From NCBI GenBank assembly GCA_000350305.1, contig CP002916.1, positions 248,001 to 312,000 of the forward strand: a stretch of DNA of 64,000 bases, written 5' to 3'. This DNA is from Thermoplasmatales archaeon BRNA1. GTDB lineage: Archaea > Thermoplasmatota > Thermoplasmata > Methanomassiliicoccales > Methanomethylophilaceae. Positions 15,572 through 22,114 of the stretch are shown in pieces (within the stretch, counting starts at the first letter, position 1; each line of letters starts with the position of its first letter). A program made the position numbers and the translations under genes. The notes under the pieces were generated by a model. That model was not told where the DNA came from. It saw only the letters and a program-made list of their open reading frames with translations, and did not search any database.

Positions 15572-16213
15572 ATGGCATTTGAGAACGAGACGAAAGCAAT
15601 CAAAGATGCAATGGTGGCCTACAAGGTTCAGGGAATCGTCGACGCAGTCGACAAGGCCCTCGCGGCCGGAATGGGCCCGACCGAGATCATCAACGCGATG
15701 GGTGACGGAATGTCCGACGTCGGAGTCCTCTTCGAGCGCGGAAAGCTGTTCCTCCCCCATGTCCTGTCCGCCGCTGGTGGAATGACCAAGGCAATGGAGA
15801 AGCTCAACCCCCTTCTCGCAGCTGCCGGAGGCGACAAGCAGGAGAAGAAGGCCTCCGTCGTCATGGGAACCGTCGAGGGAGACGTCCACGACATCGGAAA
15901 GTCGATCTGCTCCACCATGCTGCAGTGCGCAGGTTTTGATGTCCACGACCTCGGAAGGGACGTCCCCACCCCGAAGTTCCTGGACGAGGTCACCAAGAAC
16001 GGATGCACCATGGTCGGAATGTCCGCCCTTATGACCACTACCATGGTCGTTATGAAGACTGTCATCGAGCAGCTGAAGGATCTGGGCGTGCGCGATAAGA
16101 CCATCGTCATGGTCGGCGGAGCGCCCATCACCCAGGCCTATGCTGACAAGATCGGCGCGGACATCTACGGAGAGTCCGCTTCTGAAACCACTGCAAAAGT
16201 CAAGGATCTGTGA
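15572..16213 (+). CDS. mtbC: Dimethylamine corrinoid protein
   Basis: A 213-aa cobalamin-binding protein. The N-terminal four-helix cap covers residues 1-90 and the Rossmann B12 domain follows, with DVHDIG at 104-109 (His106 is the lower axial cobalt ligand) and MVGGAPI near 180. It accepts the methyl group from the methyltransferase and passes it to the CoM methylase MtbA. It precedes mtbB by 9 bases, so MtbC is the likely assignment, but sequence alone does not fully separate MtbC from MttC. This is the only corrinoid protein in the island. Confidence 0.85.
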   Translation: MAFENETKAIKDAMVAYKVQGIVDAVDKALAAGMGPTEIINAMGDGMSDVGVLFERGKLFLPHVLSAAGGMTKAMEKLNPLLAAAGGDKQEKKASVVMGTVEGDVHDIGKSICSTMLQCAGFDVHDLGRDVPTPKFLDEVTKNGCTMVGMSALMTTTMVVMKTVIEQLKDLGVRDKTIVMVGGAPITQAYADKIGADIYGESASETTAKVKDL

Positions 16214-16222
16214 GGTATCTGA

Positions 16223-17623
16223 ATGACAGAGTATATTACCAGAATGGGAGACGGAAGGACCGTCTACATGACCAGGGAGAACGTCCTGGAAGACATCAGG
16301 AAAGGAATGGCCGACGCCGCAGACGCAGCGGGCGTTCCCGACCTCAATGAGAACGAGATCGAGCAGATGGCGGATGTCATCTGCTCCGACGAGCGCCTTG
16401 TCTCGGTTCCCCGCGGACACGAGGTCGTCATGAGTGAGGACGGAGGTCCCTACAAGATGATGATCGACTCCGGAAGCAGCGGAAACGGAATCGAGATCAG
16501 CAGGCTCCAGGCGATCCTCGCCCACGAGCGCACCCTGGGAATGGATTCTTTCCAGCTGGCACACATCGACTACTCCATCAAGGCCGTCAAGCCCATCATC
16601 GGATACGAGGCACAGGCCATGGAGCAGATCAACATGCTCAGCACCGTCCCCCTCCTCTACGGAGCGATGCCCAACATGGGTCTCTACTACGCCCCCGACG
16701 GACCGTTCGGAAACCCGGCAGACCTGATGAGGGAGTTCAAGATGGAGGAGGCCATGGACCAGGCCGAGAAGGCAGCGGCCCAGATCGCAGCCGACATCGA
16801 CTACGTCTTCTCCGGAATGATGGCCGCCGGGTCCGAGGGATGGAACTTCGACACCACCGCCTCCGCCGGAGACGCCGACTTCGTCGGAACTCTCAACGGA
16901 ATCACCGAGGTCAGGAAGAAATTCCCCAACGCTTACATCGAGATGGGAATGGCTGCCGAGAACGTCCTCGGTATCCACGGATCCATCGAGTACGACGGAA
17001 CCCCCGTTGCCGGACTCTACCCCCACCAGCAGGTGAAGCTCGCCGAGAAGGCCGGAGTCAACATCTTCGGTCCTGTCGTCAACACCAACACCTCCAGGAG
17101 TTTTGCATGGAACATCGCCCGCGCCGTCACCATGGTGAAGGAGTGCGAGAAGGTGTCCAACATCCCCTGCCATGTCAACATGGGAATGGGTGTCGGAGGA
17201 ATCCCCATGTCCGAGTGCCCTCCGCTTGACGCGGTTTCCCGCGCTAACAAGCTGATGGTCGAGATCGCACACGTCGACGGTATCTAGGCCGGAGCCGGGG
17301 ACCCCCTCGGAATGTCCAACGCCCATGTCGCCGCCTCCGGAATGGGAGGAGTGAGGACTGCGGGAGACCTCGTCGCACGCATGGAGTTCTCCAAGAACAT
17401 GAAGCTCGCAAAGGCGAAGGAGTACGTCGCCAAGAAGCTCGGAATCTCCGAGATCGAGATCGCAGACGAGACCGTCATGAGGGACCTTAGGTACGATCTC
17501 GGACTCGGAAACGTCACTTCGATTCCCGGCGCAGCCAAGGGAATGGAGGCCAAGCTCAACATCGAAAAGGTCCTCGGAATCACGATCAACAGCTGTGAGA
17601 AGTTCCGCGGAACCCTGAGATGA
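16223..17623 (+). CDS. mtbB: Dimethylamine:corrinoid methyltransferase with pyrrolysine
   Basis: A 466-aa protein if the in-frame UAG at codon 355 is read as pyrrolysine. The frame continues without a break after the UAG, ending at TGA, and both halves match MtbB of Methanosarcina closely: before it HIDYSFKPVKPV-like, [45 protein letters not shown]; after it [26 protein letters not shown], and a C-terminus CEKFRGTLR. The enzyme demethylates dimethylamine, using the pyrrolysine imine in the TIM-barrel active site to activate the amine, and methylates MtbC. Pyl-tRNA synthesis genes are not in the window. Confidence 0.95.
17285..17287 (+). other. In-frame UAG (pyrrolysine 355) of mtbB
   Basis: TAG follows ...EIAHVDGI and precedes AGAGDPLGM. 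It falls at the same site as Pyl356 of the characterised MtbB, and the reading frame is conserved on both sides. Confidence 0.95.
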
Positions 17624-17636
17624 AACATTAAAAACA

Positions 17637-17652
17637 GCGGGCTTCGGCCCGC
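17637..17652 (+). terminator. UUCG-loop hairpin between mtbB and the permease
   Basis: GCGGGC-TTCG-GCCCGC, a six-pair stem with the very stable UUCG tetraloop, 13 bases after the mtbB stop. No T-run follows and a GGTGAT-like ribosome site comes after it, so it may be an attenuator or an mRNA-stabilising processing site rather than a full terminator. Confidence 0.55.
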
Positions 17653-17670
17653 ACCGTTTCAGGTGATAAA

Positions 17671-18720
17671 ATGGTTCAAGACATAGAACAGATAGTCCTG
17701 AAGGAGAAGAAGAACCGTATCAAATGGGGATTCATCTGGGTCATTCTGATCGCTATCTTCTGGGGAATCGGTTACGTCCCCATGGCGACCATCTGGTGCG
17801 TCCCCGAGATCGACGGTCTCCTCGGGATGGAGGGAGACAAGGGATACCTTGGAACCTCTCTCCTCATCTCCGCTCTGCAGGCTATCGTATTCATGCTGTT
17901 CCTCACCATCGTATGGTGCGGAGCAACCGGTAAGCTGAAGGAATACAAGAAGACCATCTCCAACAAGAAGATTGTCAAGTGGATCCTCATCGGAGCAGCC
18001 TTCGGAGGGCCGTGTGCAATCTTCGGAAGCACCATCGCCATCGGATACATCGGAGCCGGATTCGCCGCCGCCATGGGTCTGATGTCCGCCATCACCGGAG
18101 CCCTCTTCGCCAGGATCATGAACAAGGAGAAGCTGTCCACCAACGCCATCCTCGGAATCATCATCCTGCTCATCGGAGGAATCATCATCCTCGATCCCTC
18201 GACCATGGTCGACGAGATTAAGAACGGAAGCGCCGTCGGATACATCGGTGCCCTGATGTCCATCATCGGATGGGGACTGGAAGGAAACTTCGCCGTCAGG
18301 TCCCTCGATGTCACCGATTCCGACGCGAGTCTCCCCGTCAGGTACACCCTGGAGAGTCTCCTGTGGATCTGCATCATCCTGCCGATCTCCATCGTGATCT
18401 TCGGTCCCTCCGAGTTCATCGACGCGATGGTCGACTGTTTCACCAACGCACCTGTCCTGTTCTGGGAGTTCATGGCCGCCATGACCCTCGGAATGTGCTA
18501 CGTGTGCCAGTACAGGTCCTTCGCCACCCTCGGTGTCGGACGTACCCTCAGCATCCAGTCGTTCTACGTGCCGGTTTCGCTGATCGCCCTGTACTTCTTC
18601 ATGGGACAGGAGATCGGAATCATGCTCGCAGCAGGATCCCTCATCGCCGTCTTCGGAATGTTCGTGATGTACAGAGAGAGCAGTTCGATCATAGATTCCA
18701 CCCGTGATATGGAGGATTGA
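17671..18720 (+). CDS. mtbP: Predicted methylamine permease (DMT-like, MttP/MtbP type)
   Basis: A 349-aa membrane protein with about 10 hydrophobic helices in two similar halves, the pattern of the drug/metabolite transporter superfamily. Conserved stretches include WGIGYVPMATIW (helix 1), FGSTIAIGYIGAGFAAAMGLMSAITGALFARIM, and ALMSIIGWGLEGNFAVRSLDV. Proteins of this kind sit beside mtb/mtt genes in Methanosarcina and are named MttP/MtbP. It lies after mtbB behind a hairpin and a GGTGAT ribosome site. Dimethylamine uptake is inferred from context; trimethylamine is an equal possibility. Confidence 0.75.
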   Translation: MVQDIEQIVLKEKKNRIKWGFIWVILIAIFWGIGYVPMATIWCVPEIDGLLGMEGDKGYLGTSLLISALQAIVFMLFLTIVWCGATGKLKEYKKTISNKKIVKWILIGAAFGGPCAIFGSTIAIGYIGAGFAAAMGLMSAITGALFARIMNKEKLSTNAILGIIILLIGGIIILDPSTMVDEIKNGSAVGYIGALMSIIGWGLEGNFAVRSLDVTDSDASLPVRYTLESLLWICIILPISIVIFGPSEFIDAMVDCFTNAPVLFWEFMAAMTLGMCYVCQYRSFATLGVGRTLSIQSFYVPVSLIALYFFMGQEIGIMLAAGSLIAVFGMFVMYRESSSIIDSTRDMED

Positions 18721-18725
18721 TTGAG

Positions 18726-19013
18726 ATGCCTATCCTAAGTATCAAGTCCGGACTCCTGAAGAGGATCTACGAAGCGGGAGGGCCCGTCTGGGAAGACGAA
18801 CTGGTCAAGGCCACCATGGAGGCGGAGGGAGTCTTCTCCGACTACTGGAAGTGGACCATCCGCTACTACATGATGGAGATGCTCGCTAACGGAATGATCG
18901 ATGCGGTCGAGTACAAGCTCGGCGACGAGTCCAATTTCGGAAGCGAGCATTCGATTGCAAAGTATCAGATCAACGACTTCGGAAAGATGAAAGTCGAATC
19001 CATGCTGTTGTGA
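18726..19013 (+). CDS. Small predicted winged-helix protein in the methylamine island
   Basis: A 95-aa soluble protein starting MPILSIKSGLLKRIYEAGG. Predicted secondary structure (helix, helix, helix, beta-hairpin with MIDAVEYKLGDESNFGSEHSIAKYQIND) resembles a small winged helix and the spacing of turn residues is compatible, but I do not recognise a family. The ATG at 18726 has GGAGG at 18711-18715; a TTG at 18717 is an alternative. It follows the permease gene by only 5 bases. A regulator or methyltransferase accessory is possible. Confidence 0.6.
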   Translation: MPILSIKSGLLKRIYEAGGPVWEDELVKATMEAEGVFSDYWKWTIRYYMMEMLANGMIDAVEYKLGDESNFGSEHSIAKYQINDFGKMKVESMLL

Positions 19014-19018
19014 TATCC

Positions 19019-19138
19019 ATGTTCGATCTAGACGAATTCTTCGCTTTCAACAATGCGGATGTGGTCTACTGCGTCTTCGCCGTCGTGCTGACCGTAGCGG
19101 CCATCTTCATTGGAAGGACCTTCTTCAAGAAGATCTGA
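19019..19138 (+). CDS. 39-aa single-pass membrane peptide
   Basis: A short open frame, MFDLDEFFAFNNADVVYCVF followed by a hydrophobic helix (AVVLTVAAIFI, about 18-31) and a basic end (GRTFFKKI). It lies 5 bases after the 95-aa gene and just before a hairpin. The acidic N-terminus, central membrane helix and positive C-terminal end fit a small membrane protein, possibly partnering the permease. Too short for usual gene finders; no family recognised. Confidence 0.55.
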   Translation: MFDLDEFFAFNNADVVYCVFAVVLTVAAIFIGRTFFKKI

Positions 19139-19148
19139 AAACCATTTA

Positions 19149-19166
19149 AGGGGCCGGAAGGCCCCT
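19149..19166 (+). terminator. GGAA-loop hairpin upstream of mttB
   Basis: AGGGGCC-GGAA-GGCCCCT, a 7-bp stem, 10 bases after the 39-aa peptide stop. A second RBS-bearing leader follows before mttB. It may separate a downstream mttB unit, or stabilise a processed mttB mRNA. Confidence 0.55.
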
Positions 19167-19191
19167 GGTACACTTATAAGGAGGAATTACA

Positions 19192-20679
19192 ATAGCAAAA
19201 GCAAGCTTCACCCTTCTAACCAAAAGCGATCTCGACAAGATTCACGAGACGACCATGAGGGTTCTCGAGAACGTCGGCCTCAGGGTGGATTATTCCGAGG
19301 CAAGGAAGCTGCTGAAGGAGAACGGGTGCGATGTCAACGAGGAGACGAGGGTCGTCAAGTTCCCCCGTGCCGTCGTCGAGAAGGCGATCAAGAGCGCGCC
19401 CGAGAAGTTCAACATGTATGGACGCACCGGAAAGTGCGTCGAGATGGTCAGCGACGGTTCCCACACCAACTATCTGACTTTCGGAGTCGGAACAGAATAT
19501 ACTGTTTACAAGGGGCACAACAGCTACGAGACCAGGGGAAGCACCCTGAAGGACATCGGGGAGATCTGTAAGGTCACCGATGCACTCGACAACATCGACT
19601 GGCTCTGTGCACCCGTATCCGCCGTCGACCTTGCGGTGGACGAGACCAAATGCAGGCCTCTGAGGGAGTGGAAGGAGATCTTCATGAACCTCACCAAGCC
19701 CCTCATGGCGGATCCCGACCCGAGATACATCGAGGATTACTTCGCCATGGAGGTAGCCCTGTACGACGGAGACGAGGAGAAGGCCAGGAAGATGCCTGTT
19801 TCCATCATGGGAAGCTGCCCCTCCAGTCCCCTCCAGCTCGACGAGACCTTCGGAAGGTTCGCGATGGCGGCACCGAAGTACGGATTCCCGATGATGGTCC
19901 TTTCAATGGCCATGGGAGCGGCATCCGCGCCCATCAGCATCGCCGGAACCCTCGTCACCCACAATGCGGAGGTCCTTGCGGGAATCACCCTGGTCCAGCT
20001 CTCCTGTCCCGGAGCGCCCTGCTTCTACGGAAGCTCCACCACTTCGTTCGACTTCTACACCGGATCGGCACCTGTCGGATCTCCCGAGCTGGCACTTATC
20101 AGTGCAGGCGTGTCCGAACTCGGACAGTACTACAAGATCCCCACCGTCGTCGCCGGTACTTAGACCGACGCCAAGAGGCCCAACGAGCAGTGCGGACACG
20201 AGAAGACAATCACAGGAATCCTTCCGGGAATGACCGGGGCATCCAACATCTACGGATCCGGAATGCTCTCCCTCGGAATGTCGTTCTCCCTCGAGCAGCT
20301 CGTCATCGACAACGACATCATCGGGATGATCAAGTACGCCGCCAAGGGAATCGAGGTCAACGACGGCACCATGGCATACCAGACCATCGTGGACGTCGGA
20401 ATCGGAAACGACTTCCTCGCGACCCCGGACACCATGGCAAACATGGAGAACCCCTCGGCACCCACAATGTTCGACCGTTCAATGCGCCCCGAGTGGGAGA
20501 GGGCGGGAGAGAAGGACACAGGCGATATCGCCCACGAGAAGGTTGTCGACATCCTTGAGAACCACAAGGTCGAGCCGATGAGCGACTACGCCATCAAGAG
20601 GTTCGACGAGATCATCGCCGCCGCTGAGGAAAGGATCAAGAAGGAACTGGAGGAGAGGGATGCAGAATCTGAGGATTGA
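19192..20679 (+). CDS. mttB: Trimethylamine:corrinoid methyltransferase with pyrrolysine; apparent AUA start
   Basis: A 495-aa MttB if the UAG at codon 324 (20161-20163) is read as pyrrolysine. Both sides match Methanosarcina MttB: GAPCFYGSSTTSFDFYTGSAPVG-like, then IPTVVAG, then after the UAG TDAKRPNEQCGHEKT and GASNIYGSGMLSLGMSFSLEQLVIDND. No ATG, GTG or TTG exists at the expected N-terminus. The homologous start IAKASFTLLT (like MAK... in relatives) begins at ATA, seven bases after GGAGG (19180-19184), with an in-frame stop just upstream; the next ATG is 21 codons later. It transfers a methyl group from trimethylamine to a corrinoid protein; no mttC lies next to it. Confidence 0.93.
20161..20163 (+). 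other. In-frame UAG (pyrrolysine 324) of mttB
   Basis: TAG lies between TVVAGT and TDAKRPNEQCGHEKT, the exact place of the pyrrolysine in MttB. The frame runs on to a TGA at 20677-20679. Confidence 0.95.
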
Positions 20680-22114
20680 GATCCTATCCAGGGACGAGAT
20701 TCGTCGCATCCACGAAGCCTCCCTCGAGGTTCTAGATTCGGTAGGAATAGCCATTGCCGATGAGGAGGCCCGCAGGATTCTTGCGAACGCTGGTTGCAGT
20801 GTGTGCGAGGAATCCAAGATTGTCAAGATCCCCAGCGGACTCATCGAAGATGCTCTTTCCAAGTGCCCGAAATCATTCGTGCTCCATGGTCGTGATAGGA
20901 AATATGATGTGAAAATGGTGAGCGACGGTTCGGTAACCAATTACATCAATCTCGGTATCGGGACCAGGGTCACCGAGTATCTCGGCAGGGGACAGTACCG
21001 CATCAGGGACAGCACCTTGGCAGATACGGCAGATTTCGCCAAGGTGTTCGATGCCTGCGGCAATCTCAACTGGATGACTCAACCCTCGTCTGCACTCGAC
21101 CTGATGACCAAGAAGTGCGTCCGTACCCTTCACGAAGTGAATGCGCTGATGTCCAACACGGCCAAGCCGATACTCCCGGATCCAAACTATCAGTACGTGG
21201 ACAGCTACTTTGAGATGATGAAAGCGGTGTATTCCGGGGATGAGGAAGAGGCGAGAAAAAACTCGTTCTTCATAATCGGAGGTACATCGTCCAGTCCTCT
21301 GCAGCTGGATGTTCCCGACTGTCAATTAATGATCCGCGGCGCAAAGCTCGGTATGCCCATCATGACCATGACTATGGAGATGGCTGGCACCACAGCACCG
21401 GTTCATGAGGCCGGAACCTTGGTCCTGCACAACTGCGAAGCACTGACAAACATACTGCTGGCACAGTTATGCATGCCGGGAACACGTTGTCTGTATGGAA
21501 CCGCAACGACAAACTTCGATTTCGCGAATAACACAGCGCCGTTCGGATCCCCGCAGGCAGCTCTCCTGAGCAGTGCAATCGCACAGATCGCCCAGTATTA
21601 CGGTCTTCCAAGCATCACTACCGGAGGAGGTAGCGACTCCATCCACGTCGATGTTCAGTCCGGACATGAGAGTACAATGACTGCATTGCTCACGGCCCTT
21701 TCGGGCTCGAACAACGTGTTCGGGTCCGGACTGCTGGAGCTCGGAATGTCCTTCTCCCTCGAGCAGCTCGTTCTTAGGAATGAGATGATTGACCAGGAGC
21801 AGAGGATTCTGAGAGGGATTCGTGTTGATGACGAGACGCTGTCTTTGTCCGAGATAATGCAGGCAGGTGTCGGAGGCGACTTCATCACCATGCCCGCAAC
21901 GGTTTCCGCGATGTCGGATGTCCAGACCGACCGTCTGTTCAACAAGAGCATGTATGATGAATGGGCCGACCGCGACTCAAAAGACGCTCTCGAAAGGGCC
22001 CATGACAGAGTGCAGGATATCCTCGTGAACCACAGAACGACACCTATCGAGCCGGACGCAAGGAAGGCCATAGATGCGTTGATCAGCAAAGCGGATGAAA
22101 AGCTCAAAGAATGA
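20660..22114 (+). CDS. MttB-superfamily methyltransferase without pyrrolysine
   Basis: A 484-aa paralogue of the preceding MttB with the same TIM-barrel landmarks (TSSSPLQLD, CLYGTATTNFDF, GSPQAALLSS, GSGLLELGMSFSLEQLV). The residue aligned with pyrrolysine is glycine (LPSITTGGGSDS, codon 324, GGT at 21629-21631). Non-Pyl MttB homologues such as MtgB act on glycine betaine or other quaternary amines, so this may demethylate a quaternary amine, or act as a partner of MttB. It overlaps mttB by 20 bases, so the two are co-translated. Substrate unknown. Confidence 0.8.
   Translation: MQNLRIEILSRDEIRRIHEASLEVLDSVGIAIADEEARRILANAGCSVCEESKIVKIPSGLIEDALSKCPKSFVLHGRDRKYDVKMVSDGSVTNYINLGIGTRVTEYLGRGQYRIRDSTLADTADFAKVFDACGNLNWMTQPSSALDLMTKKCVRTLHEVNALMSNTAKPILPDPNYQYVDSYFEMMKAVYSGDEEEARKNSFFIIGGTSSSPLQLDVPDCQLMIRGAKLGMPIMTMTMEMAGTTAPVHEAGTLVLHNCEALTNILLAQLCMPGTRCLYGTATTNFDFANNTAPFGSPQAALLSSAIAQIAQYYGLPSITTGGGSDSIHVDVQSGHESTMTALLTALSGSNNVFGSGLLELGMSFSLEQLVLRNEMIDQEQRILRGIRVDDETLSLSEIMQAGVGGDFITMPATVSAMSDVQTDRLFNKSMYDEWADRDSKDALERAHDRVQDILVNHRTTPIEPDARKAIDALISKADEKLKE

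What the first reader, a model, noticed from the sequence alone, without database searches (positions are those of the whole stretch)
19180..19194. mttB appears to start with AUA
A GGAGG site lies seven bases before ATA, which is followed by GCAAAAGCA (…AKA, like MAK in relatives). An in-frame stop is at 19177-19179 and the next ATG is 21 codons on, inside conserved sequence. AUA starts are very rare in archaea. With AUA as codon 1, pyrrolysine falls at 324, exactly the codon number of the aligned glycine in the adjacent paralogue, which supports this start.
Basis: seen in the sequence. Interest (0 to 1): 0.7.

Follow-up and report, generated by a model that had tools for sequence, protein, structure and literature searches.

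The report
AUA at an archaeal gene's start
A pyrrolysine-containing methylamine-methyltransferase gene in a gut-type methanogen has ATA exactly where its relatives have ATG or GTG, so it is either a very rare, probably weak, start codon or a one-letter error in the genome sequence, and only raw reads or protein data can tell which.

Summary
At 19177 the sequence reads TAA GGA GGA ATT ACA ATA GCA AAA GCA, with GGAGG seven bases before ATA (19192-19194). No ATG, GTG or TTG occurs in any frame from 19139 to 19254. The next ATG (19255, codon 22) has no Shine-Dalgarno site, is not a conserved Met, and lies inside a confidently predicted helix (residues 11-28). Sequence is conserved upstream of it (Ile17 invariant, Thr21 nearly so). 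All 18 same-clade orthologues start, with ATG or GTG, at or within three codons of the ATA. The initiation site is therefore very probably right. It was the only convincing AUN start found among about 1,470 genes sampled in three related genomes. Whether the A at 19194 is real cannot be settled here: no sister-strain sequence was available. Two parts of the reading need correcting. The gene is not the canonical mttB, which sits near 1.0 Mb beside its corrinoid-protein gene; this is a second pyrrolysine-bearing MttB-family clade. The 'codon 324' match to the paralogue is true but weak, since orthologues vary from 323 to 328. Best reading: a natural ATG-to-ATA change in a redundant paralogue, giving weak initiation with Met (about 0.55); sequence error is the main rival (about 0.3).

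The parts
19177..19179 (+). In-frame TAA that bounds the reading frame upstream
19180..19184 (+). Shine-Dalgarno site GGAGG, seven bases before ATA
   Evidence: 7 is the commonest spacing in sampled genes of this genome (84 of 226)
19192..19194 (+). ATA, inferred initiation codon (codon 1)
   Evidence: aligns with the ATG/GTG of the orthologues; no canonical start in any frame 19139-19254
19192..20679 (+). MttB-family methyltransferase gene, second pyrrolysine-bearing paralogue (495 aa plus TGA)
19216..19254 (+). Codons 9-21, conserved coding sequence upstream of the first ATG
19255..19257 (+). First in-frame ATG (codon 22), judged not to be the start
   Evidence: no Shine-Dalgarno site; residue is Leu/Arg/Ile/Lys in 25 of 32 homologues; inside helix 11-28
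20161..20163 (+). In-frame TAG, pyrrolysine codon 324 (aligns with Pyl334 of M. barkeri MttB)
20660..22114 (+). Adjacent MttB paralogue with Gly at the Pyl position; overlaps the gene by 20 bases
19019..19138 (+). 39-aa hydrophobic micro-ORF upstream; a similar ...FFKKI end precedes several orthologues
   Evidence: no Pfam or NCBIfam match
19150..19165 (+). Spacer hairpin GGGGCC-GGAA-GGCCCC; a hairpin is also present at the same place in G016

Best explanation
The gene is initiated at AUA 19192. An ancestral ATG (or GTG) has become ATA in this lineage, while the Shine-Dalgarno site, its spacing and the protein sequence have been kept. The ordinary initiator Met-tRNA (anticodon CAU) would pair with AUA with a third-position C.A mismatch, helped by the GGAGG site, so the protein starts with Met but is made at reduced yield. 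Shown: the position, the missing canonical start, the orthologue starts, the constraint on codons 9-21. Inferred: that the A is real, that Met is the first residue, and that yield is low.
For: GGAGG at 7-base spacing. No canonical start in any frame 19139-19254; the only other single-mismatch codon in frame before the conserved block, ATT 19186, is one base from GGAGG and too close. The 18 orthologues start at or within three codons of this column with ATG or GTG. Codons 9-21 against the two closest orthologues: pS 0.9-1.0, pN 0.24-0.28; Ile17 invariant in 32 homologues and Thr21 Thr/Ser. AlphaFold helix 11-28 at pLDDT about 96. M. barkeri MttB uses residues 17-19 for dimer contact and 23-81 as a trimer subdomain (PMC9842639); these align with residues 5-7 and about 11 onward here. 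No decay: end branch 0.25 against 0.21 and 0.19 for the nearest orthologues, dN/dS about 0.2, frame otherwise intact. A normal CAU initiator tRNA with A1-U72 ends and a GGG/CCC anticodon stem is present; no UAU tRNA was seen among those identified. A second, canonical mttB with its corrinoid gene exists elsewhere, so weak expression could be tolerated.
Against: A single base differs from the expected ATG and no independent sequence of this species was available. No other convincing AUN start was found in about 1,470 sampled genes of three genomes, so it is an isolated case. aIF1 promotes discrimination against non-canonical starts in Sulfolobus (review PMC8211752). The one well-measured natural ATG-to-ATA case I found, human FNDC5, gave only 1% product (PMC3770677), though in a eukaryotic system.
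Confidence: 0.55

Rival explanations
1. Sequencing or assembly error: the true codon is ATG (G read as A at 19194), and the gene has an ordinary start.
For: One substitution gives a textbook start (GGAGG-N7-ATGGCAAAAGC); all 18 orthologues have ATG/GTG at or next to the site; the case is unique in the sample.
Against: Single contig, estimated 99.7% complete. No specific sign of error: the local sequence is unremarkable and the frame is otherwise intact. The error rate could not be measured.
Confidence: 0.3
2. A real start-loss mutation that largely silences the gene; any product is marginal and the canonical mttB at 1.0 Mb does the work.
For: Redundant canonical mttB-mttC pair; the C-terminal corrinoid-like domain carried by the closest orthologues is absent here; AUA is expected to be weak.
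Against: Frame intact, TAG codon and its surroundings conserved, no faster evolution on this branch. A very recent loss would leave no trace, so it is not excluded.
Confidence: 0.11
3. Translation starts at ATG 19255 and the protein lacks the first 21 residues.
For: It is the first canonical start in any frame.
Against: No Shine-Dalgarno site; Met22 is not conserved (7 of 32 homologues); it would remove invariant Ile17 and cut helix 11-28 and the segment aligned with the dimer strand of M. barkeri MttB.
Confidence: 0.04

Closest known systems
AUU starts of E. coli infC and pcnB (PMC9410913)
   Same: Conserved gene with a near-cognate AUN start that limits or regulates translation.
   Different: Bacterial and AUU; infC is autoregulated by IF3. 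Here AUA, in an archaeon, with no evidence of regulation.
Human FNDC5 (irisin precursor), ATG to ATA (PMC3770677)
   Same: Conserved ATG replaced by ATA in one lineage, with downstream in-frame ATG; confirmed by RACE and about 1% yield.
   Different: Eukaryotic scanning initiation; no Shine-Dalgarno site.
MttB, trimethylamine:corrinoid methyltransferase (7xcl/7xcm/7xcn; PMC9842639; TIGR02369)
   Same: Same family, amber codon aligned with Pyl334, above the NCBIfam cut-off (568 against 525 bits).
   Different: In a clade separate from M. barkeri MttB and from this genome's own canonical copy; shorter N-terminus; substrate unknown.

Membership tests
Near-cognate (AUA) translation start | No canonical start can account for the conserved N-terminus | tested here: met
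   none in any frame 19139-19254; codons 9-21 under constraint
Near-cognate (AUA) translation start | Ribosome-binding site at proper spacing | tested here: met
   GGAGG, spacing 7
Near-cognate (AUA) translation start | Site coincides with start of orthologues | tested here: met
Near-cognate (AUA) translation start | Base confirmed by independent sequence | not testable with these tools
   No same-species record; viral-contig pattern scan empty, metagenome scans not available
Near-cognate (AUA) translation start | Initiation at the codon shown by peptide or footprint | not testable with these tools
   needs experiment
MttB family (PF06253 / TIGR02369) | Score over curated cut-off | tested here: met
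MttB family (PF06253 / TIGR02369) | In-frame amber codon at the Pyl position | tested here: met
Canonical archaeal mttB orthologue | Groups with M. barkeri MttB | tested here: not met
   the 100/100 clade with M. barkeri MttB contains L002 of this genome and excludes the window gene
Canonical archaeal mttB orthologue | Own adjacent corrinoid partner gene | tested here: inconclusive
   nearest is an MtbC-like gene at 15572; the canonical mttB has one adjacent at C1:999072

The most novel reading that the evidence does not exclude
A genuinely AUA-initiated archaeal gene in which a weak start and an amber/pyrrolysine codon together throttle translation of a second MttB-family methyltransferase, and through the 20-base overlap perhaps also of the non-pyrrolysine paralogue behind it.
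Probability: 0.13. Interest if true: 0.6.

Novelty: new member of a known kind. Interest (0 to 1): 0.36.

Why it matters
If the base is real, it is a clean natural test of AUA initiation in archaea: one gene, one changed base, good Shine-Dalgarno site, no alternative start in any frame. I found no report of an archaeal AUA start in the open literature searched. It also warns that gene finders limited to ATG/GTG/TTG will truncate this protein by 21 residues and cut its first helix. If it is an error, the correct N-terminus is still 19192.

Tried and rejected
Other ATA starts: of the GGAGGN{5,9}ATAGC hits elsewhere in the genome, the five inspected are not credible starts. Other candidates from the start scan were rejected on inspection: L063 is a broken gene fragment, L058 has a normal GTG, L052 is a broken ATPase-like gene. 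Special initiator tRNA: none seen. Start at ATT 19186: one base from GGAGG. Rfam: no match in 17400-19400.

Full report
What is there. The window is bases 248001-312000 of a 1,461,105-base single-contig archaeal genome. From its size and relatives it is probably the rumen Methanomassiliicoccales strain 'Thermoplasmatales archaeon BRNA1'; that name is my inference from memory, not a tool result. At 19177 the + strand reads TAA GGA GGA ATT ACA ATA GCA AAA GCA AGC TTC. GGAGG ends seven bases before ATA, and seven is the commonest spacing among Shine-Dalgarno-bearing genes sampled from this genome. The frame runs from ATA through one TAG (20161-20163, codon 324) to TGA at 20677-20679.

Why the start must lie near ATA. 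No ATG, GTG or TTG exists in any frame between the stop of the upstream micro-ORF (19138) and ATG 19255. Codons 9-21 are nevertheless protein-coding: against the two closest orthologues synonymous change is saturated (pS 0.9-1.0) while pN is 0.24-0.28. Ile17 is invariant and Thr21 is Thr or Ser in 32 homologues, while residue 22, the only candidate canonical start, is Met in just 7. An AlphaFold model (mean pLDDT 87.7) places a helix at 11-28 with pLDDT about 96. In M. barkeri MttB, residues 17-19 form a dimer-stabilising strand and 23-81 a trimerising subdomain (PMC9842639); these align with residues 5-7 and about 11 onward here. Starting at Met22 would remove the first and cut into the second.

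Why ATA in particular. All 18 orthologues of the same clade begin at or within three codons of this column, with ATG or GTG. The nearest by genus, in G016, has the same local gene order: permease, an approximately 95-aa protein, a micro-ORF, a spacer hairpin, then this gene. The only other one-mismatch codon in frame before the conserved block is ATT 19186, one base from GGAGG, which is too close. Chance is a poor explanation: only 0.9% of ATA trinucleotides in 864 kb have GGAGG 5-9 bases upstream.

How unusual it is. In 805 genes from 864 kb of this genome, and 667 more from two related single-contig genomes, a scan for a strong Shine-Dalgarno site before a near-cognate codon with coding sequence ahead of the first canonical start gave this gene as the only convincing AUN case. 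One further oddity, an amrS-like gene in G013, may also lack a canonical start but is unclear. The scan is a heuristic and would miss cases without a strong Shine-Dalgarno site.

Real or error. The evidence above fixes the position, not the base. G read as A would give a textbook start. No same-species sequence could be obtained, so I cannot exclude error and give it 0.3. A real ATG-to-ATA change is plausible because the gene looks redundant: the canonical mttB is at C1:999352-1000773 (-) with a corrinoid-protein gene beside it. The frame, the amber codon and the evolutionary rate show no decay. The genome has an ordinary initiator tRNA and no sign of a special one. Comparable natural cases are AUU in E. 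coli infC and pcnB (PMC9410913) and ATA in human FNDC5, with about 1% yield (PMC3770677). In archaea aIF1 promotes discrimination against non-canonical starts (PMC8211752), so weak initiation is the expectation.

The gene is not the canonical mttB: a tree puts M. barkeri MttB and this genome's other copy in one clade (100/100) and this gene with its orthologues outside it, though NCBIfam's MttB model accepts all three copies in this genome. Relatives start MKN/MKS/MEN rather than MAK. The 324 = 324 coincidence with the paralogue is true but orthologues range from 323 to 328, so it adds little.

Verdict. The initiation site is very likely right (about 0.93). AUA as a real, used start is the best single reading (0.55), an error is the main rival (0.3), and the decisive test is read-level or protein-level data.

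Noticed in passing
L005, L006, L012 (orthologues of window 19192-20679): Three orthologues (739, 743, 733 aa) carry a C-terminal extension that looks like a corrinoid-binding (MttC-like) domain, i.e. a single-chain MttB-MttC; the window copy lacks it and runs straight into the non-pyrrolysine paralogue. Identified by eye, not by a domain search.
   Followed up: partly
window 17637-17652 and 19150-19165; L005 about 1457-1472: GC-rich six-base hairpins with TTCG or GGAA loops sit in the spacers of this cluster, each between a possible TATA-like stretch and the next Shine-Dalgarno site.
   Followed up: partly
window 19019-19138: A 39-aa hydrophobic micro-ORF just upstream; a similar ...FFKKI end precedes several orthologues in other genomes.
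   Followed up: partly
L071, minus strand, TAG at 19809-19811 (about C1:649.8 kb): In-frame TAG near the start of a gene resembling phenylacetate-CoA ligase: possible incidental pyrrolysine or a damaged gene.
   Followed up: no
L105 (G013), minus strand near 1318: An AmrS-like radical-SAM gene with coding sequence well ahead of its first canonical start; possible second non-canonical start or an indel.
   Followed up: no
window 20660-22114: The non-pyrrolysine MttB homologue (Gly at the Pyl position) still just passes NCBIfam's Pyl-MttB cut-off (528 against 525 bits), so automatic annotation may misname it.
   Followed up: no
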